Source: Anisus vortex (Eukaryota; Mollusca; Gastropoda; Planorbidae). Taken from it: DNA of 64,000 nt. Under the pieces are notes generated by a model. That model was not told the origin of the DNA, ran no database searches, and saw only the letters and a list, made by a program, of their open reading frames with translations. The DNA lies in assembly GCA_949126835.1 (NCBI GenBank), contig OX421502.1, positions 37,977,282 through 38,041,281 on the forward strand, written 5' to 3'. How positions within the stretch are numbered: position 1 is the first letter of the stretch; the number at the start of each line of letters is the position of its first letter. The translations under genes and the position numbers were made by a program. Below, piece by piece: positions 239 through 64,000 of the stretch.

Positions 239-599
239 TTAGCTTACACAATATTATGCAAAATTTGTGTTTAACTGCAAGTATAGTGTTTTTTTTAACC
301 TTCCCCATCCCGACATATAAAATAGGCGGACACATCATAAATAAGGATGTTAAACGAAAACCGAAATACCGGATTCCGGTTTTGAAACCTAAAACCGGTT
401 TGATTTGTCGGTAGTACACCCTTTTCTTTTTTTTTTTGTTCTGATGGAAATATTTTTTTTTATAAATAATGTTGGTACTGCCACCACTCCGGTTTATCTG
501 TTGGGAACTTAGTTTACACCGAGCCATCGTTATTACTTTCCCCTATATTTTTAGCCTGTGCAGAGCCTACATGTCTTTGTGTCTCTTGTTTAATTCCAG

Positions 600-1077
600 A
601 TAATTGGATAGCCAGTTTCAAGAGATATTTTCTCATCCTGGTGTTAATACTAAATTACAGATTAGTAACCTTGACATTCTTTGTGATGTCTTTGATGATG
701 TATCAAGTAGGAATTTTTCAGGTTCGCTATGTCGGAGCCCAGTTGGAGAAGTATGAAGTAAGTCTCATTGGCAGTTAATTATTGTACCAAGTTTGTTCAA
801 ACTTTAAGACTTATAATATAGGCCCTATATTAAAAATAACTTTTTTCTCCCTTATACAAAGTTACCCCGTTTTATCTATAATGTATTAATGTATTTGATT
901 GCTTAGATCGAACTCATGTATAAAGAAAAAGCCAAACATATTTTTTTTTACTTCATTTAGCTAATCCCCCAATGTGCTATCAACGAAAACTACGCCCCTT
1001 GGAAGTTCGGTGTGGCAGCTGTCGTGGTTTATGTTGATCTGTATGTGTTGTCATGTGTGTATGGGTTTGTAAAGTAA
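600..1077 (+). CDS. 3' part of an unidentified membrane protein gene (two exons)
   Basis: Exon A (600-757) follows an AG and ends before a perfect GTAAGT donor. Exon B (961-1077) follows TTTAG and runs in frame to TAA. Together they encode about 90 residues: a long hydrophobic stretch (FLILVLILNYRLVTLTFF onward), a charged LEKYE segment, then a second hydrophobic stretch (WKFGVAAVVVYVDLYVL). This suggests at least two membrane segments. I do not recognise the family. Earlier exons would lie left of the window. The TAA overlaps a GTAAGT at 1074-1079, so exon B could instead be internal and splice onward at 1073; I found no convincing next exon. Both readings remain open. Confidence 0.55.
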
Positions 1078-1500: not shown

Positions 1501-1824
1501 GGGGGCAGAGGGGGCGGCAAATGTAATCTAAATATAGCACTAAACAAGCAGTTACAGTATGCAAAGGGGCGGCAAGAAGGCTCTGTATATTATATATATA
1601 TATATATATATTACAGTATACATACGAGAGATTATTTTATACAGTTTGTACTGTAAGCCTTTAAAGTCACATGACCTTTCTAGTTCTTAGTTTTCTTTGC
1701 TATTTACGTGACTTTCTAGATTGATTTGTGTGATGACAAGAATTGTTGATGAAGAGGATTTCGTGTTTTAACAGTAACAGATGAAGATTATATGGTGTAC
1801 AAGAGTAGTATGTATGTATGTTTG

Positions 1825-2514
1825 TGTGGTGGTGGTGTGTGGTTTAGGTGTTACTTTTGAAAGCACTAACAAAGTCTCACAGTACTTTCAATGAAGATGT
1901 TTTATTTTATAAGCTACAAGACAGGTACCCAGGGTTGGCTTGCCACTGGCATGAACACCTGTTATCAAAATCAAGAGGAATATAATAAATGTAACTAAAT
2001 AGACCATAACATAACGACTAAAACTTAAATAGTCATTAGATCAACAGAATAGGTAAAACAATATGAAAATAATAGACATAACTATAAACTATAATACGGT
2101 ACAAAAAGGAAATAAATACTCAATAGTAAATACTGTAAACTGTAACATGACTTAGCCATCTTAGCATGAATAGCCTTAGCAAAACATGTTCAATGATTAT
2201 AAGCCTACTCAATGAAACAAATTAATCATGAATTAATAATGATATAAAACTAAGAGCAAACAAATAGCTGGGACAAGTGAATAAAAAAGGATTATAATTA
2301 TAGGGCCTACTTAAAATTCAACCATACCAATCAGGAAAAAAGGTGGAAACAAAAGAAACACAAACGGCAGGGCATCAGTCACAACAGCTTAGGGGAATCG
2401 TCGGAGTGTAAGTAAAATCAAATGAGATGACTCCAGAATCCGCGGTTTTTATTTTTTGTCTTGCCAACTTTGTGTTGACAAACTAACCCATTTAAGGATG
2501 GGCACTATACTACA
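1825..2514 (-). repeat. LTR (3' LTR in element orientation)
   Basis: 690 bp, beginning TG and ending CA on either strand. I saw no difference from 3832-4521 on reading through both copies. Confidence 0.85.
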
Positions 2515-2530
2515 GACTCCCCAGCCTGAT
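2515..2530 (-). other. Candidate polypurine tract
   Basis: On the minus strand this reads caggctggggagtc and abuts the 3' LTR. The purine run is short, so the call is tentative. Confidence 0.4.
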
Positions 2531-2555: not shown

Positions 2556-3704
2556 TTAAAACATTCTAAACGGCTCACTCATGAGCCCAAGAATGGCATG
2601 TGCCACTGGGAAGGCAGCCAACAACAAGAACAACAAAGGCACTGCGGGTGTTGGCTGACACCTAGTCTCTTGTGCGGTTACATTTATACTGGTTACCCCT
2701 TTAAGTTTTGTGGAAGTACTCGGAGGCCATGCCTGCAGCCGTGACGAATATTGAGACTCATTTTGTTGTTGAATGTTTGGAGGAGGCTCGTTGCTCGCCA
2801 AGGTAGCAGTCACTGGTTCGGGCCTTAGGGTGACGTGGGCTTGAGGCTTATCGATATCTGTTGGTCGACGTTCGGAAAAATGTGGCCTCCCATTGCCGGC
2901 ACCAGAATGTGGTACGCATGATGAATGCCTGTTGTTGGGAAGCACCTGGCTTTTATTTCTTTGCTGGGATGTATAGTCTGTTACCATAGCCTTATCCTCT
3001 TGGAATGTCCTCCTTGGTCTGTCCCCTGTACCATTTTGTGGATACCCTCTATGACTTGATCTGCGACGATCAGGGGCATATTTACTGCCTTTTACATTGG
3101 AACCATCTGGACCCGTTACATTCGCAGCCTGATTACCATTCTCGCCTACAACAACATCGAACTCAACTTTTTCACCATCACCAACACTCCTAAGGTATTT
3201 TCTTGGGTTGTTTCTGATAATGGCTGTATAGTGCACAAACACATCTTCCTTTGTGTCCTCACGATTGATAAATCCATATCCACGTTTGACATTAAACCAT
3301 TTGACTGTTCCTGTCACATTAGCAGCCATAACATTTCTTTTCTTACGCTTTGGTGGAGAGTCGTTGGCAGACCCTGCCAGCACTCGACTCTGCATGCCGG
3401 GGGGCGCTAGTTTTGGATGACTCAATGTGCAACGCCTTTTTATGTGTCCTGGTTCCCAGCAAGAGGTGCAGACAGGCACGTCCTGCTCATTATATGGGTA
3501 GAATTTGCTTCTATATGGAAACACTCTTGACAAAGTCCCCCTCCACACTAAACCAGGCGGTGCAAATTTTCCGCTGCGCTGGTGGTGCTTATACATATTG
3601 CCAGGCTCTCTCTCCGAGACACCTATCCGCTTCTTTGCTTCAATCTCTTCAAGTCTTTCGCTCAACTGCGAAAGCCTTGAAAGTATATTATAACGGTCCT
3701 CCAT
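2556..3704 (-). CDS. Retroelement protein: CCHC zinc knuckle fused to Y-box cold-shock domain
   Basis: A 382-residue intronless ORF filling nearly all of the element interior. Residues 4-26 look like a short leucine/glutamate coiled coil. C79-x2-C82-x4-H87-x4-C92 is a retroviral-type CCHC knuckle as in Gag nucleocapsid. PPKRKKR (117-123) is a basic, NLS-like patch. Residues 127-205 form a full Y-box cold-shock domain: [12 protein letters not shown]1 RGYGFI (141-146), RNP2 VFVH (155-158), then [14 protein letters not shown] and ANVTGP. Residues 206-245 are basic and RG/aromatic-rich, as in Y-box tails. The end (about 355-375) is hydrophobic. Family knowledge: Y-box proteins package mRNA; Gag knuckles package element RNA. 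Inference: a host Y-box cDNA was captured into a Gag-like ORF. It could instead be two ORFs fused by chance, but the frame is open throughout. Confidence 0.85.
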
Positions 3705-3811
3705 CAGTTGCTAGGACATCTCTCTCTCTTGGGAAGGCAATGCACATCAGCTCTCTCCTTTTCTGGCGTACCTGTCTCTGCTTGTCGATGCACACACCAA
3801 ATTGCGAACAA

Positions 3812-3828
3812 CCCCACTCGTGCTCCCA
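3812..3828 (-). other. Candidate primer-binding site
   Basis: On the minus strand a sequence starting TGGGAGCACGAG begins 3 nt inside the 5' LTR. The position and TGG start fit a tRNA-primed minus-strand origin. The tRNA could not be assigned from memory. Confidence 0.55.
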
Positions 3829-3831
3829 GTT

Positions 3832-4521
3832 TGTGGTGGTGGTGTGTGGTTTAGGTGTTACTTTTGAAAGCACTAACAAAGTCTCACAGTACTTTCAATG
3901 AAGATGTTTTATTTTATAAGCTACAAGACAGGTACCCAGGGTTGGCTTGCCACTGGCATGAACACCTGTTATCAAAATCAAGAGGAATATAATAAATGTA
4001 ACTAAATAGACCATAACATAACGACTAAAACTTAAATAGTCATTAGATCAACAGAATAGGTAAAACAATATGAAAATAATAGACATAACTATAAACTATA
4101 ATACGGTACAAAAAGGAAATAAATACTCAATAGTAAATACTGTAAACTGTAACATGACTTAGCCATCTTAGCATGAATAGCCTTAGCAAAACATGTTCAA
4201 TGATTATAAGCCTACTCAATGAAACAAATTAATCATGAATTAATAATGATATAAAACTAAGAGCAAACAAATAGCTGGGACAAGTGAATAAAAAAGGATT
4301 ATAATTATAGGGCCTACTTAAAATTCAACCATACCAATCAGGAAAAAAGGTGGAAACAAAAGAAACACAAACGGCAGGGCATCAGTCACAACAGCTTAGG
4401 GGAATCGTCGGAGTGTAAGTAAAATCAAATGAGATGACTCCAGAATCCGCGGTTTTTATTTTTTGTCTTGCCAACTTTGTGTTGACAAACTAACCCATTT
4501 AAGGATGGGCACTATACTACA
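3832..4521 (-). repeat. LTR (5' LTR in element orientation)
   Basis: 690-bp direct repeat of 1825-2514. Element transcription should start here and run leftward. Confidence 0.85.
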
Positions 4522-5209
4522 TTTGTATGCATGTATGTATGAATGAAAGATCAGAAATAAAACAACATCTTTGCAACATAGCTTTTGTTACGTGTCATCT
4601 TTTTTCTTGTTTTTTTTCAATTAAATTCTTTGTGGTTTTGTTTTTCTGGTAAGTTGTTTAAAAAAAATAATACATGATTAGGTCAAGTAAGGCAGAGGTC
4701 AGTATTTGGCAAATATGGTGTGCGGCCAGCCGATCCTGTAGTTAGTTCACCGTACTGTCAACCCTGCTGACCGATCACTGTCGCCCTAACATTTACTAAT
4801 ATTATTATTGTTATTTCTTTTTTTGTATTTTTTTAATTATTAATGGCGATTCATTGAGGTTCTTGCTTGTGGCCCTCATCCCCACTCCCTCCCCACACAT
4901 ACACTCACTCCCACGCCACTATTGCTGTTTTTTTGCTGTTGTTGTATTGAGTATGATCAATGAAGTAACAGAAGAGCGGCCATTGACGTCCAACTGAAAT
5001 CCCAAAATGTTACTTTTGTATAGATTTAAAATCCAAACAAATAATTACATTACCAATTTTACAGTTATGATGACATCTGAGAAACATTTCTATCACTGGA
5101 TTTTACAATTATTTAACTAGTTCTTCAGGTAAAATTCAAGTAGCCTGTATCCATAGATATCTATGCTGTATCTCCCGTATGTCTCACGTAGGCTTTTGTC
5201 TCATATTTT
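4522..5209. other. Non-coding stretch with a SINE fragment
   Basis: At 4722-4795 lies a copy of SINE family B (the 'tagttagttcaccg...actgtcaacc' type, also at 21.88, 32.39 and 43.00 kb). No other supported feature is visible. Confidence 0.5.
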
Positions 5210-5395: not shown

Positions 5396-5472
5396 ACTTT
5401 CTTGTGTGCTATAAAATATTATAAGTAGTTCATGGACACATTTGATCACAGAGCATTAGCAATGAAGTCACC

Positions 5473-5738
5473 ATTAAATTGTGGACATTAAATTGTGGAC
5501 ATTAAATTGTGGACATTAAATTGTGGACATTAAATTGTGGACATTAAATTGTGGACATTAAATTGTGGACATTAAATTGTGGACATTAAATTGTGGACAT
5601 TAAATTGTGGACATTAAATTGTGGACATTAAATTGTGGACATTAAATTGTGGACATTAAATTGTGGACATTAAATTGTGGACTTTAAATTGTGGACATTA
5701 AATTGTGGACATTAAATTGTGGACTATAAATTGTGGAC
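5473..5738 (+). repeat. 14-bp minisatellite (ATTAAATTGTGGAC)n
   Basis: About 19 near-perfect head-to-tail copies. Only the last few units differ (acttta, actata). Confidence 0.95.
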
Positions 5739-7559: not shown

Positions 7560-7635
7560 ATTTAATTGCACCAGCCTCACCCCCCCCACACACACACACA
7601 CACAAACTCACACATATACAAACATACACATAATA
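7560..7635 (+). repeat. (CA)n microsatellite
   Basis: An imperfect CA run directly precedes the LINE remnant at 7640. Confidence 0.7.
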
Positions 7636-7639
7636 TCAA

Positions 7640-8290
7640 TGCTATGGTTAAGGCTTGTTCGTCTCGTCTACGCGCCCTGGGTCAACTGCGACCTCAACTC
7701 AATAGAAGGACGGCCAATACCGTAGCAGTCTCTCTTATCCAGTCAAGGTTGGATTACTGCAATAGTTGCCTGTGGGGCTTGCCCCAGAACCAGCTGCAGA
7801 GATTACAGAACACCGCGGCGCGCATTGTTTCGGGGGTGTGGAGGCAAGAACATATCTCCCCAACACTAAGAGATCTCCACTGGCTCCCGGTGATAAAACG
7901 AATAGAGCACAAAATTATGTCCATTATGTACGGATGCATAAAGGGCATTGCTCCTTCCTATCCTTCTTCGAGAGCTTATCTCAAGGCATGAGCCATCTAT
8001 GGAACTGCGCTCTTCAACACAGTCATTCCTCAAAACTCCCTGTTTGGATGGACACAAAAAGAAGTAGCTGGGAGTGCGCTCATTTGAATCAGTTGCGCCT
8101 TCTTTATGGAACAGTTGATATCAGACACTGAGAGAATCTGGGACAAGAGAAACTTTTAAAAAGAACTCAAAAAACTTTCTCTTTGGTTAATACATCTACC
8201 ATTGCAAGTCACACCAAGAGCGCACTGAGCATGCTAATTTAATAGCATGGATAGAAGCGCTATAAGAAGTGCCTATTCTTATCTTATCTT
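7640..8290 (+). pseudogene. LINE reverse-transcriptase C-terminus (L2/CR1-like), broken
   Basis: The frame through 7991 reads RRTANTVAVSLIQSRLDYCN then LWGLPQNQLQRLQNTAARIV and LRDLHWLPVIKRIEHKI. These are hallmarks of L2/CR1-type LINE ORF2 C-termini. Beyond a frame change near 7985 the text continues with GVRSFESVAPSLWNS, also typical. The copy ends in (cttat)n. It is frameshifted and 5'-truncated. Confidence 0.85.
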
Positions 8291-26634: not shown

Positions 26635-29600
26635 TTACCATTCCAACTTTTTCACGGGGTATTCCCCACTTAAACACGCAGTGCAGTGACCAGTTTCTTG
26701 ACCTTCCTTCAGGCCTTCAGTGACCGCTTTCTTGAGTCCCTCCAGAGACAAATATTTCACAGAGTCAGCACCTGGTGGAACACAGAAACATTTTACACTC
26801 AAGTAATTATCCAGAAGAAGTATTCAACAAAGGTGTATTCAACAGAAGATGTATTCAACAGAAGATGTATTCAACAAAGGTGTATTCAACAAAAGATGTA
26901 TTCAACAAAAGATGTATTCAACAAAAGATGTATTCAACAAAAGATGTATTCAACAAAGGTGTATTCAACAAAAGATGTGTTCAACAAAAGATGTATTCAA
27001 CAAAAGATGTATTCAACAAAAGATGTATACAACAAAAGATGTGTTCAACAAAAGATGTGTTCAACAAAAGATGTGTTCAACAAAAGATGTATTCAACAAA
27101 AGATGTATTCAACAAAAGATGTATTCAACAAAGGTGTATTCAACAAAGGTGTATTCAACAAAAGATGTATTCAACAAAAGATGTGTTCAACAAAAGATGT
27201 ATTCAACAAAAGATGTATTCAACAAAAGATGTATTCAACAAAGGTGTATTCAACAAAGATGTATTCAACAAAAGATGTATTAAACAAAAGATGTATTCAA
27301 CAAAGGTGTATTCAACAAAAGATGTATTCAACAAAAGATGTGTTCAACAAAAGATGTATTCAACTAAGATGTATTCAACAAAAGATGTATTCAACAAAAG
27401 ATGTATTCAACAAAAGATGTATTCAACAAAAGATGCATTCAACAAAAGATGTATTCAACAAAAGATGTATTCAACAAAAGATGTATTCAACAAAAGTGTA
27501 TTCAACAAAAGATGTATTTAACAAAAGATGTATTCAACAAAGGTGTATTCAACAAAAGATGTATTCAACAAAGATGTATTCAACAAAAGATGTATTTAAC
27601 AAAAGATGTATTCAACAAAAGGTGTGTTCAACAAAAGGTGTGTTCAACAAAAGGTGTGTTCAACAAAAGGTGTATTCGACAAAAGATGTATTCAACAAAA
27701 GATGTATTTAATCAAGATGTATACCAATTGGCATTATAGTAAAAAAAAATGTAAACTACTTTTTCAAGAAAGATTTCTTGGTATTTTTATATTAAGGATG
27801 AAACTATCTATATATAACTAACTCATTTTCAATTCTTAAAAAAAAGGCTAGTAAAGTTAAATCTCTGCATCTAATGACTTTAGTTTCAACGATTTCGGTT
27901 TTTCTAATTTCTTCCTGAGAGAAAGTCTTGGTTTTCGTTGACTCCATTAGAATTCATCGTCTCTGAAGCTGGTCTTCTAGTGCCAAAAGACACCAATAAG
28001 GGAAATAAATCACACGACTTAAAGTCAGTATGAATGGGAATTTTCTATTCAAACAATAATATCTGCACCTTCTACTCATCTTTCACATACTTAGTAGTTT
28101 TTTTTAAAGGTAACTTTTTTTAACGGCTAAGTTTTCTTTACATTAGTGTTTACATTCATTTTATATAAACTTCTAAGTGTTTTGTTTAGTATTAAACAGT
28201 ATATTTCTTCGCTATAAAATTATTGCTGGCATGGATTTTACATAGATTCATATGAAAATAATTGTCTCAGTTTTTCAGCATTTACAGTTTTCTTACGGTC
28301 CATTCAGGCGGAACTATCAACAAGAAGCGTGGTTAGACTGTAATGCAAATAAAGAACTCCACTAAAATTAACAAATAAAGAGCTGAAATATCTACAAACT
28401 CTGACAATGACACAAAAAAAACTTACCAAAACATTTAGCAATTTCATCCAAGGGGATAATGTTGGCAATAAGTTCTTCCTTTGTTGGAATATTGATCCCC
28501 ATGTAGCAAGGGTATTTAATAGGAGGGGACGCAACTCTCACATGCACCTGTCAATGAGATAAAACAAACATCTTGAAATTGTTTCTTGAAACCAACTGGT
28601 TTTATTTTGTTGGCTGACATATTCATATACTTCAATTTCATTTCCTTCTATTTATTCATTATTCATAGAAGTCTATGGACAATAATAGCAGTAGAGAAAA
28701 AATCAAACGGGTTTCTTACTTTAAAATCATTTCAGAATTACCCAAACAAAATAAATTCACAAACTTATCTATCATGGAAATCATCATATTAATTTCTTTC
28801 ACAATTTATACATTTTTACATGCTGCTTCAGCTATTTATTGCTCATTTCACAAATTTTGTCAATGTATATGAACCCTCATCAGCATTAGTTTCCTGCTAT
28901 GTCTAAAGCATAGATTCTTCTGATGTGTATCTTATATGTTATTACATTAATATGCATTTTGCATCTACTGGTAAAATATTAATGTGTCACTGAAAGTAAA
29001 AAATGTATTTGTATTTAAGTCTGTCCATCAGCACCTTTGCCATTCTTCATGTCTAGTTAGAAATTGTTGACAATTACCTATAACTTTGTTTTTGAACATA
29101 ATTTTTCTTTCTTTTTTTTTTATCGTTCTAATAGATTTCAAGCTCAAATTTTTAAATGGCTTTCTGACAAAGAAAATAAATTTAAAAACTTTATAAAAAC
29201 AATTTACCTCTTTAGCACCAGCTTTTTTTAAAAGTGCCACCAACTGCCCCATTGTCGTGCCCCTGACTATTGAATCGTCTATCAAAACCAATCTTTTCCC
29301 AAAAAAATTGTCCACCAAGGGCCCAAATTTTTTGGCCACTCCGAGTTTTCGCAGTCGCGTGGAAGGTTGTATAAATGTGCGGCCAACATATCTGTTTTTG
29401 CAGAGAACCTCACGATAGGGAATATTGAGCTGAAATGGAAGAACATTCTCTGTAGATGAATCTGCGGCATTAGAAATGGGAATATCAATGAACCAAAATT
29501 AGGAAAAGAAAAGTTCATCAGAAGATAATTTATAATTATTTTTTGTAGTAACATAAAAGTCTATTAATCACTCTGCCTCCAGTTACCTAGAATACACTCG

Positions 29601-57847: not shown

Positions 57848-59026
57848 TTAAGTTAACCCAATAGATTCGTTGTAAAAACAAATAAGCTCCAGAAGATCTT
57901 TTACGTCTGCTTGCTCATCAATTAGGCGCTGACAAGATTCTTGCAGAGATATGATGACTTTCGTAGACCTACCAAGTATCTGAGCTAGCCCTTCAGTATC
58001 CGCTTCCACAAGTTGCTAGATAAGACATTGAAAATAAAAATTATATTTATTATTTATTTATTTTGTCTATACCTGCAAGATGTAATAATTTGGTAGTATC
58101 TTACATGCATTTCATCTTCATTCAATAATACAACACAAGCGAGGTCTACTTTGATTTTCTCAATGACTGAAGATAAATCACAGTCTTTACGGCCACATTC
58201 TAATACAGCGCCATCTGGGTGATCGTAACTCGTAATGGCTACACAGGGAAAAAATAATGGAAAATTGAATTTTTTACTGTATCATGACTACACTGTTGGT
58301 TTCTGTGATCTAGCTACATGACTTTAGGTGACCAAGACTATCATGGCTTTAGGTTGACCTCACCCAAGACTATTAAAACTGTTAGGGAAATATTTTTTTT
58401 TAATTTTTTTTTTCTCCCAAGAGTCCAGAGGGAAGAGTTTACAATGCTATCACTCGCATTTAATCAGGGGAAGTAATTGGGAAAGTAAAGGTGTTGAGGC
58501 GCTTTGCTGACCACACTATCCCCACATTAATGTAAAGGATTTAAAATATAAAAATAATCTACATATTGTAAAAGTAGATTGGATGGATACTTTAAACAAA
58601 ACAATTTTGACTTTGACTTTAAAACATAAAAAATCGATAGAAAATATATTAAACTACACCTACAAGAGTGTGGAGGCATCCATTCGCTTCGACCGGGTAG
58701 CAACATGAACACTGTGTTGTCTGGCAAGAAGGAGAAATATTCCTCATCAATTTCTGTTCCATCCTCTGCAAGAACGACTGTGACAGGAGGATCAATTTGG
58801 AGTTTTTCACAACCTTCAAACGTAAAAAACAACAAATACCAAACAACAACAAACAAACAAAACAACAAGAATAAAATAATTGATAGCTTTTAATTTACTT
58901 TATTTATTTATTTTTTATTTTTTTACCTTTGTTTTTAAGCTCTTGAAATGATGAGACAGTAAATCCTTTTGTGACAATTCTTTCTTTATCCCAGACTTTA
59001 AACGGTCTATACTTAGGTTCACACAT
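57848..59026 (-). CDS. DFFA: DNA fragmentation factor subunit alpha-like (ICAD), short form
   Basis: ICAD chaperones and inhibits the caspase-activated DNase until caspases cleave it. Four exons (minus): 59026-58927, 58813-58664, 58238-58105, 58015-57848, joining to 183 aa. Residues 1-83 form a CIDE-N domain (RPFKVWDKERIVTKGFTV, then TVVLAEDGTEIDEEYFSFLP, then NTVFMLL). The rest resembles the ICAD middle domain: IEKIKVDLACVVLLNEDEM and ISLQESCQRLIDEQADVKDL. Human DFFA is 331 aa with a C-terminal chaperone domain, which is absent here; the length is near the human short isoform. Either this is a natural short form or a further exon is missed. Exons 1-2 lie in the left arm of an inverted duplication. 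Confidence 0.85.
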
Positions 59027-60331
59027 TTTTAAAAAATGTGATAATCCTTTAAAAATAAATATAAAAATAGTCAAACTTGGTTACCTACCCTTGCCAATAA
59101 TATTGGCAATATAATATTTGTTGACTACGCCTAGTTTTCTTTTTATCGGTCCCTCTTTCTAACTCCCACTCTATCAAATCTTATAGAACTACAAACTCTT
59201 ATCTTCAACTCCCTTGTCAGCTGTTACATTCGCATTATTTGTGCCTCATTTCTTTATTATAGCTCCAGATCGTTCTCACTACTATCTTTCTCACCCAAAA
59301 CTGTTAGTTACTCTACTTTCAATAATGTTCCCTCTCTACAACGTGCGTCAGACATACATTGTTTTTCTGCCTAGAAAGTTTTTTAGTACACTTGTCTATG
59401 GACACCTTTTTTTTTTCTCCAACTCTCTTGTTATTTTTTTCTCCCTCTCGAAAAAAAGTCTCCCTCTCGAAAAGAAATATTTCCTTCCAATAAGGAAATA
59501 GAGACCGGCTTGTAATTTTTTTTCTCCCTCTTCGAAAAAAAAAGTCTCCCTCTTGAAAAGAAATATTTCCTTCCAATAAGGAAATAGAGACCGGCTTGTA
59601 ATTTTTTTTCTCCCTCTTCGAAAAAAAAAGTCTCCCTCTTGAAAAGAAATATTTCCTTCCACGAAGGAAATAGAGACCGGCTTGTAATTTTTTTTCTCCC
59701 TCTTCGAAAAAAAAGTCTCCCTCTCGAAAAAATTTCTTCCCTGGCATCCTTCTTTCTCCAATCATCTTGTAATTTTTTTCTCCCTCTTCGAAAAAAAAGT
59801 CTCCCTCTCGAAAAAATTTCTTCCCTGGCATCCTTCTTTCTCCAATCATCTTGTAATTTTTTTCTCCCTCTTCGAAAAAAAAGTCTCCCTCTTCGAAAAA
59901 ATTTCTTCCCTGGCATCCTTCTTTCTCCAATCATCTTGTAATTTTTTTCTCCCTCTTCGAAAAAAAAGTCTCCCTCTTCGAAAAAAAAGTCTCCCTCTCG
60001 AAAAAATTTCTTCCCTGGCATCCTTCTTTCTCCAATCATCTTGTAATTTTTTTCTCCCTCTTCGAAAAAAAAGTCTCCCTCTCGAAAAAATTTCTTCCCT
60101 GGCACCCTTCTTTCTCCAATCATCTTGTAATTTTTTTCTCTCTCTCTTCGAAAAAATGGTCTTCCCTGCCATGTCTTTATAACAGGCAAATCGTTTAGCA
60201 TATCTACACTCCTAACTCTAAAACGGTGTGTACATTACACGTCACCAAGGTTTTTGCAAGTAACGTTCTTTAGAGATATCAAAGGCCAAGTTGTAAACCT
60301 AAAGTTATCCCGACTGACCCTCATGTGAATT
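58609..60331 (+). repeat. Inverted duplication, left arm
   Basis: Reverse-complement match to 62277-64000 with matching positions summing to about 122608-122610, so indels are few. It contains DFFA exons 1-2, the 5' flank and a minisatellite. Divergence is patchy: most stretches look identical, but about five changes occur within 100 bp near 59.15 kb. Confidence 0.95.
59400..60160 (-). repeat. Minisatellite in left arm
   Basis: Units of roughly 84-92 bp in two types, sharing 'tctccctcttcgaaaaaaaa'. One type contains 'ttccctggcatccttctttc', the other a hairpin 'tatttccttccaataaggaa'. The open frames in the array are repeat artefacts. Confidence 0.95.
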
Positions 60332-62276: not shown

Positions 62277-62444
62277 AATTCACATGAGGGTCAGTCGGGA
62301 TAACTTTAGGTTTACAACTTGGCCTTTGATATCTCTAAAGAACGTTACTTGCAAAAACCTTGGTGACGTGTAATGTACACACCGTTTTAGAGTTAGGAGT
62401 GTAGATATGCTAAACGATTTGCCTGTTATAAAGACATGGCAGGG

Positions 62445-63200
62445 AAGACCATTTTTTCGAAGAGAGAGAGAAAAAAATTACAAGATGATTGGAGAAAGAA
62501 GGGTGCCAGGGAAGAAATTTTTTCGAGAGGGAGACTTTTTTTTCGAAGAGGGAGAAAAAAATTACAAGATGATTGGAGAAAGAAGGATGCCAGGGAAGAA
62601 ATTTTTTCGAGAGGGAGACTTTTTTTTCGAAGAGGGAGACTTTTTTTTCGAAGAGGGAGAAAAAAATTACAAGATGATTGGAGAAAGAAGGATGCCAGGG
62701 AAGAAATTTTTTCGAAGAGGGAGACTTTTTTTTCGAAGAGGGAGAAAAAAATTACAAGATGATTGGAGAAAGAAGGATGCCAGGGAAGAAATTTTTTCGA
62801 GAGGGAGACTTTTTTTTCGAAGAGGGAGAAAAAAAATTACAAGATGATTGGAGAAAGAAGTATGCCAGGGAAGAAATTTTTTCGAGAGGGAGACTTTTTT
62901 TTCGAAGAGGGAGAAAAAAAATTACAAGCCGGTCTCTATTTCCTTCGTGTAAGGAAATATTTCTTTTCAAGAGGGAGACTTTTTTTTTCGAAGAGGGAGA
63001 AAAAAAATTACAAGCCGGTCTCTATTTCCTTATTGGAAGGAAATATTTCTTTTCAAGAGGGAGACTTTTTTTTTCGAAGAGGGAGAAAAAAAATTACAAG
63101 CCGGTCTCTATTTCCTTATTGGAAGGAAATATTTCTTTTCGAGAGGGAGACTTTTTTTCGAGAGGGAGAAAAAAATAACAAGAGAGTTGGAGAAAAAAAA
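62445..63200 (+). repeat. Minisatellite in right arm
   Basis: Mirror of 59400-60160, with small differences in the unit series and a few point changes (for example a tatgcc for gatgcc near 62860). Confidence 0.95.
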
Positions 63201-63583
63201 AAGGTGTCCATAGACAAGTGTACTAAAAAACTTTCTAGGCAGAAAAACAATGTATGTCTGACGCACGTTGTAGAGAGGGAACATTATTGAAAGTAGAGTA
63301 ACTAACAGTTTTGGGTGAGAAAGATAGTAGTGAGAACGATCTGGAGCTATAATAAAGAAATGAGGCACAAATAATGCGAATGTAACAGCTGACAAGGGAG
63401 TTGAAGATAAGAGTTTGTTGTTCTATTAGATTTGATAGAGTGGGAGTTAGAAAGAGGGAAAGATAAAAAGAAAAACTAGGCGTAGTCAACAAATATTATA
63501 TTGCCAATATTATTGGCAAGGGTAGGTAACCAAGTTTGACTATTTTTATATTTATTTTTAAAGGATTATCACATTTTTTAAAA

Positions 63584-63945
63584 ATGTGTGAACCTAAGTA
63601 TAGACCGTTTAAAGTCTGGGATAAAGAAAGAATTGTCACAAAAGGATTTACTGTCTCATCATTTCAAGAGCTTTAAAACAAAGGTAAAAAATTAAAAATA
63701 AATAAATAAAGTAAATTAAAAGCTATCAATTATTTTATTCTTGTTGTTTTGTTTGTTTGTTGTTGTTTGGTATTTGTTGTTTTTTACGTTTGAAGGTTGT
63801 GAAAAACTCCAAATTGATCCTCCTGTCACAGTCGTTCTTGCAGAGGATGGAACAGAAATTGATGAGGAATATTTCTCCTTCTTGCCAGACAACACAGTGT
63901 TCATGTTGCTACCCGGTCGAAGCGAATGGATGCCTCCACACTCTT
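63584..63945 (+). pseudogene. Partial DFFA copy with stop in exon 1
   Basis: Exon 1 copy 63584-63683 and exon 2 copy 63796-63945 mirror the DFFA exons with intact splice sites. Exon 2 looks identical. In exon 1, codon 31 reads TAA (63674-63676) where the left copy has AAA (Lys), so the copy would end after 30 residues. Exons 3-4 would lie right of the window if the duplication includes them. Confidence 0.85.
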
Positions 63946-64000
63946 GTAGGTGTAGTTTAATATATTTTCTATCGATTTTTTATGTTTTAAAGTCAAAGTC

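What the first reader, a model, noticed from the sequence alone, without database searches (positions are those of the whole stretch)
2556..3704. Y-box cold-shock domain captured in a Gag-like LTR-element protein
Seen: one 382-aa intronless ORF between matching LTRs, with a CCHC knuckle (C79, C82, H87, C92) and a complete Y-box cold-shock domain (127-205) with RNP1 and RNP2, followed by a basic RG-rich tail. Known: Y-box proteins bind and package mRNA and are multi-exon host genes; CCHC knuckles select element RNA. Inference: a host Y-box cDNA was transduced into a non-autonomous retroelement, giving a protein that may package element RNA into particles. I know of no described element with this pair of domains.
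Basis: partly seen in the sequence, partly recalled or inferred. Interest (0 to 1): 0.92.

Follow-up and report, generated by a model that had tools for sequence, protein, structure and literature searches.

The report
Retrotransposon that captured a Y-box protein
A 2.7-kb DNA element with two identical long terminal repeats carries a single open gene that joins a zinc-knuckle motif to a complete Y-box cold-shock domain; the Y-box part was likely copied from a snail's own mRNA-packaging gene and the fusion protein is predicted to coat the element's RNA, and no other mobile element with this cargo turned up in our searches.

Summary
On the MINUS strand, 690-bp LTRs (1825-2514, 3832-4521; identical, TG..CA, TTTG outside both) enclose 1317 bp holding one 382-codon ORF. 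[quoted passage not shown] Three corrections: the tail is not RG-rich; 'Gag-like' rests on the knuckle alone (no capsid found, no relatives for residues 1-122); the capture includes about 70 tail residues with an RPRxxFQED signature seen in panpulmonate snails. The CSD falls in a poorly resolved, gastropod-rich part of a tree on a long branch (0.26). No second copy appeared among predicted proteins or viral contigs. The host genome could not be searched, so copy number, parent gene and autonomous partner are untested. Best reading: a young non-autonomous LTR retrotransposon that transduced a Y-box cDNA, likely encoding its own RNA-coating protein and copied in trans. Passive cargo is the main rival; evidence for selection on the ORF is only modest.

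The parts
3832..4521 (-). 5' LTR of the element (690 bp)
   Evidence: 690/690 identical to 1825-2514, TG..CA; TATAAA at 3913-3918 on the minus strand
1825..2514 (-). 3' LTR of the element (690 bp)
4522..4525 (.). target-site duplication TTTG (right)
1821..1824 (.). target-site duplication TTTG (left)
3811..3828 (-). putative primer-binding site, TGGGAGCACGAG..., 3 nt after the 5' LTR; primer tRNA not identified
   Evidence: sequence; no tRNA set at hand (0 tRNA genes in the window)
2517..2527 (-). putative polypurine tract AGGCTGGGGAG (two pyrimidines inside), 2 nt before the 3' LTR
   Evidence: sequence
2556..3704 (-). single ORF, 382 aa plus stop
3624..3701 (-). residues 2-27: predicted helix with a leucine/isoleucine heptad, probable coiled coil
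   Evidence: block pLDDT 87, 95, 79 and helix 2-27; heptad read by eye
3429..3470 (-). residues 79-92: CCHC zinc knuckle [14 protein letters not shown]
   Evidence: (below Pfam cut-off)
3111..3314 (-). residues 131-198: Pfam core of the Y-box-type cold-shock domain
2832..3338 (-). residues 123-291: captured Y-box segment (CSD plus tail part with RPRRTFQED)
2577..2645 (-). residues 354-376: hydrophobic stretch near the C-terminus, origin unknown
   Evidence: highest Kyte-Doolittle 19-mer 2.36 at 357

Best explanation
This is an LTR-flanked element with no reverse transcriptase frame of its own, whose only open gene fuses a CCHC zinc-knuckle motif to a Y-box cold-shock domain; the Y-box part was likely transduced from a gastropod host mRNA, and the protein is predicted to coat the element's RNA while an autonomous relative would copy it in trans. 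Shown: identical LTRs with a 4-bp target duplication, no pol frame, one intact ORF, a knuckle motif, a Y-box-type CSD and part of a Y-box tail. Inferred: transcription from the LTR (TATAAA near its 3' end); self-association through the N-terminal helix; RNA binding by knuckle plus CSD, much as a retroviral nucleocapsid or a LINE ORF1 protein acts as an RNA chaperone (recalled comparison); preferential binding of the RNA being translated, giving cis-preference for packaging or stability; reverse transcription and integration by a Ty3/Gypsy- or BEL-type partner.
For: Element anatomy: LTRs, TSD, TG..CA, a TGG-starting site at +3 and a purine-rich run before the 3' LTR, both on the coding strand. 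ORF longer than the longest frame of each of 2000 Markov copies. CSD: PF00313 E 1.6e-25; Y-box chains at 141 bits; model at pLDDT 83.5, its five best Foldseek hits YBX2 and YB-1 CSDs bound to RNA at rmsd 0.7-1.0 A. Captured tail: 13.3 bits against a profile of 23 host tails, 0 of 1000 shuffles as high (maximum 7.6); RPRRTFQED matches a pattern found in 6 of 97 host tails (looser [FY][QE]E[DE]: 9 of 97, including the four named rows that I class, from recall, as panpulmonates) and in 1 of 200,000 shuffles of the element tail. Age contrast: zero LTR differences, yet 15 of 94 CSD residues differ from the nearest host row P0021 (branch 0.26), and the frame is still open: in a substitution-only neutral simulation reaching that divergence, 5.5% of 3000 runs kept the whole ORF free of stops. 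Changes avoid conserved columns over all 94 columns (166 of 50,000 permutations as extreme). Precedent: YB-1 supports retroviral particle production in an RNA-dependent manner (PMC6040738, passages).
Against: No second copy seen; host genome not searchable. The knuckle is below Pfam's cut-off. For the CSD alone, 54% of the neutral runs had no stop. Restricted to the 82 core CSD columns the constraint test is not significant (3778 of 50,000), and 4 changes hit columns invariant in all 87 host rows (K123R, Q159Y, K189N, E192Q). The long branch may have arisen in a host paralogue before capture; the tree is weak, its bootstrap had not settled and the element's letter make-up was flagged as odd. 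No capsid domain found. The tail has lost its RG repeats. No unusual fold in the 219-nt stretch of LTR 3' end plus leader (z 0.56). The leader has two upstream ATGs.
Confidence: 0.52

Rival explanations
1. Passive cargo: an LTR element that transduced a Y-box cDNA by template switching, as plant elements carry host gene pieces; the ORF is open because this copy is young or the capture recent, and the protein does nothing for the element.
For: Transduced host segments in LTR elements are well known in plants (PMC13317346, passages). LTRs are identical, so this copy is probably recent. 5.5% of neutral runs keep the whole ORF open and 54% keep the CSD open, and the core-column test is not significant. 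No second copy seen.
Against: CSD divergence (15 of 94 from the nearest row) is large for a domain that differs by 4 of 94 residues between Candidula P0017 and Physella and by 3 between P0017 and Elysia, yet there is no stop and the frame is kept through CSD and tail; the Y-box segment is fused in frame behind an RNA-binding knuckle. The simulation ignored indels, which would lower the neutral probability.
Confidence: 0.3
2. Host Y-box paralogue or retrogene first, element second: a diverged single-exon Y-box gene was fused to a knuckle in the host and was then enclosed by LTRs, or the element was taken over by the host as a regulator.
For: The long CSD branch (0.26) could have accumulated in a host paralogue.
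Against: 0 of the 120 listed relatives (of 2176 matches) carry the CCHC spacing anywhere; the TSD lies outside the LTRs and the ORF fills 1149 of 1317 bp of the interior.
Confidence: 0.12
3. Assembly artefact: two LTR copies brought together around an unrelated retrogene.
For: The window end carries an inverted repeat of 1725 aligned bases at 99.4% identity, so local assembly oddities are possible.
Against: Identical LTRs, TTTG on both outer sides and plausibly placed terminal signals; the inverted repeat lies about 54 kb away.
Confidence: 0.04

Closest known systems
Bs1 of maize (LTR element carrying transduced ATPase and other host gene segments; PMC13317346, passages and reference titles)
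   Same: LTR element with host coding segments joined into a hybrid ORF
   Different: Plant; the captured parts come from a membrane ATPase, a xylan endohydrolase and a glucanase gene, not an RNA-packaging protein. Whether Bs1 keeps gag sequence was not checked here
TRIMs, including biv-TRIM of bivalves (PMC6934838, abstract) and Helenus/Ajax (PMC10886601, passages)
   Same: Short non-autonomous LTR elements, some in molluscs, thought to be copied in trans
   Different: [quoted passage not shown] its longest Helenus is 1263 bp); this element is 2697 bp with a 382-aa ORF
Bdelloid rotifer LTR elements with captured ORF3s (PMC5408684, abstract and passages)
   Same: Animal LTR elements with foreign ORFs; [quoted passage not shown]
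   Different: Most keep gag and pol; the captured ORFs are esterase, exonuclease or env-like; 'cold shock' and 'CCHC' do not occur in the main text
Y-box factors of heterobranch gastropods (for example P0017, P0021, P0024, P0027; grouping by named rows and recalled taxonomy)
   Same: CSD at 77-79 of 94 residues for the twelve nearest rows, tail partly alignable
   Different: No CCHC spacing (0 of 120 listed proteins); RG-rich tail (12-15 RG in six counted)
LIN28 (CSD plus CCHC knuckles in one host protein)
   Same: Same two domain types
   Different: LIN28 has the CSD first and two knuckles behind it (recalled); the CSD here is Y-box type

Membership tests
Non-autonomous LTR retrotransposon | Two direct LTRs with TG..CA ends | tested here: met
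   690/690 identical
Non-autonomous LTR retrotransposon | Target-site duplication of about 4-6 bp (range recalled) | tested here: met
   TTTG on both sides, 4 bp
Non-autonomous LTR retrotransposon | PBS and PPT next to the LTRs | tested here: inconclusive
   TGG-starting site at +3 and AGGCTGGGGAG before the 3' LTR; no tRNA matched
Non-autonomous LTR retrotransposon | No pol of its own | tested here: met
   The only coding-strand frame of at least 120 aa in the interior is the 382-aa ORF; Pfam shows no RT, RH, IN or protease in it
Non-autonomous LTR retrotransposon | Several dispersed copies | not tested
   The genome search unanswered eleven times; no other copy in the window
TRIM | Under 1000 bp and encoding no protein for mobilization | tested here: not met
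   2697 bp with a 382-aa ORF; definition from PMC10886601
Retroelement Gag | Capsid (CA) domain | tested here: not met
   Besides the CSD and OB-type matches Pfam gives only the weak knuckle; residues 1-122 without relatives; residues 30-120 nearly all at pLDDT under 50
Retroelement Gag | CCHC nucleocapsid knuckle | tested here: inconclusive
   C79/C82/H87/C92 with GH, rare in shuffles; Pfam 14.2 bits, below the 20.8 cut-off
Y-box protein (YBX) | Y-box-type CSD with RNP1 and RNP2 | tested here: met
   W136, F145, F156 and H158 kept (RNA-contact role recalled)
Y-box protein (YBX) | RG-rich basic C-terminal domain | tested here: not met
   One RG in the tail, although residues 221-291 align with gastropod tails
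LIN28 | CSD followed by two CCHC knuckles (recalled) | tested here: not met
   One knuckle, in front of the CSD

The most novel reading that the evidence does not exclude
An animal LTR retrotransposon that replaced capsid-type Gag by a captured host mRNA-packaging protein: the knuckle-CSD fusion coats the element's own RNA in cis, shields it as an mRNP and hands it to another element's reverse transcriptase, so that a host translational packager has become the nucleocapsid of a selfish RNA.
Probability: 0.27. Interest if true: 0.85.

Novelty: new variant of a known kind. Interest (0 to 1): 0.6.

Why it matters
Host-gene capture by LTR elements is well documented in plants (PMC13317346, passages), but here the cargo is a protein whose host job, coating mRNA, is what a retroelement needs. 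If the ORF is under selection, the element is a natural test of how little an element-encoded RNA-binding protein needs in order to secure cis-preference without a capsid of its own, and of how nucleocapsid-like proteins can be rebuilt from host parts. YB-1 is reported to support several retroviruses (PMC6040738, passages), so capture would internalise a known cofactor.

Tried and rejected
Gag parent: residues 1-122 searched against proteins of 210-668 aa (56 candidates, none at E<=10) and, with a longer reference to shift the length window to polyprotein size, about 550-1750 aa (107 candidates, none at E<=10). Viral contigs: none of six peptide patterns matched. Y-box homology upstream of the CSD: against a profile of host N-termini the element's N part was not listed while 731 of 1000 shuffles were, so the match drawn by MAFFT there is not accepted. 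Fold of LTR end plus leader: ordinary (z 0.56). Rfam and tRNA in the window: none. A 39-residue leader stretch gave only a sub-cut-off EGF_Tenascin match, E 0.032, taken as noise. Whole-protein fold: only the N-terminal helix and part of the CSD are confident (mean pLDDT 48.4, 13 rows). NCBIfam gave only bacterial cold-shock models, all below cut-off.

Papers: ten library searches. Five paired cold-shock or Y-box wording with LTR, retrotransposon, Gag, CCHC, mollusc or transposable-element terms, three concerned non-autonomous or gene-capturing LTR elements and two YB-1 with retroelement packaging. Judged by titles and starts of abstracts, none of the papers listed is about an LTR element with a CSD; the lists show only the top of 75, 17, 43, 1342, 135 and 23 papers. 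The library lacks most subscription journals, and no repeat library (Repbase, Dfam) was at hand. LIN28, LINE and TRIM readings were considered and dropped on domain order, CSD type, LTRs and size.

Full report
The element. On the minus strand, two 690-bp direct repeats (5' LTR 3832-4521, 3' LTR 1825-2514) are identical at every base, begin with TG and end with CA, and have TTTG immediately outside each end. The whole is 2697 bp, its interior 1317 bp. Three bases into the interior, on the coding strand, comes TGGGAGCACGAG..., placed as a primer-binding site would be, and AGGCTGGGGAG ends two bases before the 3' LTR, placed as a polypurine tract would be; I could not match a tRNA (none lies in the window). 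A TATAAA lies near the LTR's 3' end. No other copy of LTR or interior lies in the window (only matches of 14 and 16 bases). By eye, two plus-strand frames with donor-like ends just upstream (about 595-757 and 958-1075) suggest that it sits antisense in an intron.

The ORF. The interior carries one frame of 384 codons from stop to stop (382 from the ATG), against a maximum of 321 in 2000 order-2 Markov copies. The finding's coordinates are right; its strand is minus. Residues 2-27 are predicted as a helix (block pLDDT 87, 95 and 79) with I7, L11, L14, L18 and I21 in heptad spacing (by eye). Residues 79-92 are [14 protein letters not shown]; 2 of 200,000 shuffles of residues 1-122 contain the CCHC spacing and none the GH form, though Pfam gives only 14.2 bits against its cut-off of 20.8. 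Residues 131-198 match PF00313 at E 1.6e-25. Against solved structures the best rows are Y-box CSDs at 141 bits; LIN28 rows reach 38.7 or less. A model of residues 115-225 on a 43-row alignment has mean pLDDT 83.5, and its five best Foldseek matches are YBX2 and YB-1 CSDs in complex with RNA, rmsd 0.7-1.0 A.

What was captured. The Y-box similarity does not stop at the CSD. A profile of 23 gastropod-like tails, which I picked from the 120 listed proteins, scores the element tail at 13.3 bits, with residues 221-291 aligned; 0 of 1000 shuffles reach this (maximum 7.6). The element has RPRRTFQED; the pattern RPRx(x)[FY][QE]E[DE] occurs in 6 of 97 host tails, and [FY][QE]E[DE] in 9 of 97 (97 are those of the 104 proteins after P0016 in which the script found the tail start). 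The named rows among the nine are Candidula (two), Biomphalaria and Physella, all panpulmonates by recalled taxonomy; the named Aplysia, Elysia, Plakobranchus, Haliotis, Mizuhopecten and Orussus rows are not among the nine. 1 of 200,000 shuffles of the element tail has the pattern. So the parent was probably a panpulmonate Y-box mRNA. Upstream of the CSD no Y-box similarity is supported. The tail is basic but has a single RG, against 12-15 RG in six gastropod proteins counted, so 'RG-rich' is wrong.

Where it falls in a tree. With 88 CSD rows of 94 columns (P0001-P0016 and P0030 left out as multi-domain or odd, duplicates and short extracts dropped), the element falls in an unresolved group whose named rows are heterobranch gastropods, with an end branch of 0.26 against a median of 0.015; no well-supported set holds it, the bootstrap had not settled and the element's letter make-up was flagged as odd. 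The twelve nearest rows share 77-79 of 94 residues; Candidula P0017 and Physella share 90, P0017 and Elysia 91.

Is it under selection? The evidence is modest. This copy is probably recent (zero LTR differences), whereas the CSD differs at 15 of 94 residues from its nearest row (P0021). In a substitution-only neutral simulation run to that divergence, 5.5% of 3000 runs left the whole ORF without a stop, but 54% left the CSD alone without one; indels, which were ignored, would lower both. Changes fall in columns that vary in hosts more than expected over all 94 columns (166 of 50,000 permutations; 2 of 100,000 for the 17 differences from the overall consensus), but not significantly over the 82 core columns (3778 of 50,000). 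Four changes hit columns invariant in all 87 host rows. W136, F145, F156 and H158, which correspond to RNA-stacking residues of YB-1 as I recall them, are kept. A host paralogue that diverged before capture would produce the same picture and cannot be excluded without the genome.

Gag? No matrix, capsid or protease match was found. Residues 1-122 have no relative among proteins of 210-668 aa or about 550-1750 aa. The knuckle alone makes the protein nucleocapsid-like, not Gag-like. If particles are used they must be a partner's.

Second copies. The whole-protein search (candidates of 210-668 aa) gave 2176 matches, of which the 120 best are listed; none of these covers more than 48% of the query in its best local alignment, and 0 of the 120 contain the CCHC spacing. 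A full-length copy would be expected to head the list. The viral contigs gave nothing. Records of the window's own genome may be left out of these sets, and the genome search did not complete (eleven tries), so absence elsewhere says little about copy number in the host.

Mechanism. The likeliest reading: the LTR transcript is translated to a protein that self-associates through its N-terminal helix and binds single-stranded RNA through knuckle and CSD; binding to its own message would give cis-preference, protect the RNA and present it to the reverse transcriptase and integrase of an autonomous Gypsy- or BEL-type relative. Every step after 'open ORF with these domains' is inferred. [quoted passage not shown]

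Known kinds. Transduction of host segments into LTR elements is established for plants: Bs1, and 1343 transduced sequences in sorghum LTR elements, as reported in the review PMC13317346 (passages). Bdelloid LTR elements carry captured ORF3s, mostly beside gag and pol, and one family (TelKA2n) is non-autonomous with an env-like ORF (PMC5408684, abstract and passages), so a pol-less animal LTR element that keeps a foreign ORF has a precedent. Mollusc TRIMs exist (PMC6934838, abstract; PMC10886601, passages), but TRIMs are short and encode no mobilization protein. The main text of the mollusc LTR survey PMC6238403 contains neither 'captured' nor 'non-autonomous'. Searches of the open library for cold-shock or Y-box wording with LTR, retrotransposon, Gag, CCHC or transposable-element terms listed no paper about such an element, judged by titles and abstract starts. 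I therefore call it a new variant of a known kind: a gene-transducing, non-autonomous LTR element with a new and functionally suggestive cargo, seen in one copy so far.

Noticed in passing
58609-60331 and 62277-64000: Inverted repeat, 1725 aligned bases at 99.4% identity, about 1.9 kb apart and running to the window's end; the left arm takes in most of the CIDE-N exon frame (58527-58889). A local inverted duplication or an assembly fold-back.
   Followed up: partly
59414-60156 and 62452-63199: Arrays of 84-190-bp units with frames encoding FFEEGE/KNYKMIGE-like repeats on opposite strands inside the inverted arms.
   Followed up: no
26815-27708: 16-bp tandem array (56.6 copies), open in several frames; its Pfam HC2 match (41.9 bits, cut-off 40) is probably low-complexity.
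   Followed up: no
5472-5738: 14-bp tandem array CATTAAATTGTGGA, 19 copies, 98% matches.
   Followed up: no
7566-7991 (+): Frame that by eye looks like the C-terminal part of a LINE reverse transcriptase; no Pfam match at E<=0.1.
   Followed up: partly
29028-29498 (-): Frame with a phosphoribosyltransferase match (22.9 bits, below the 26.3 cut-off), probably an exon of amidophosphoribosyltransferase (gene name recalled).
   Followed up: partly
58527-58889 (-): Exon-like frame with a CIDE-N domain, E 3.2e-15.
   Followed up: partly
2577-2645 (-): The C-terminus of the element ORF holds a 23-residue hydrophobic stretch with no assigned origin; it may be non-coding sequence read in frame or a membrane anchor.
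   Followed up: no
about 595-1075 (+): Two exon-like frames of a membrane-like protein with donor-like ends upstream of the element, so the insertion is probably intronic and antisense (by eye).
   Followed up: no
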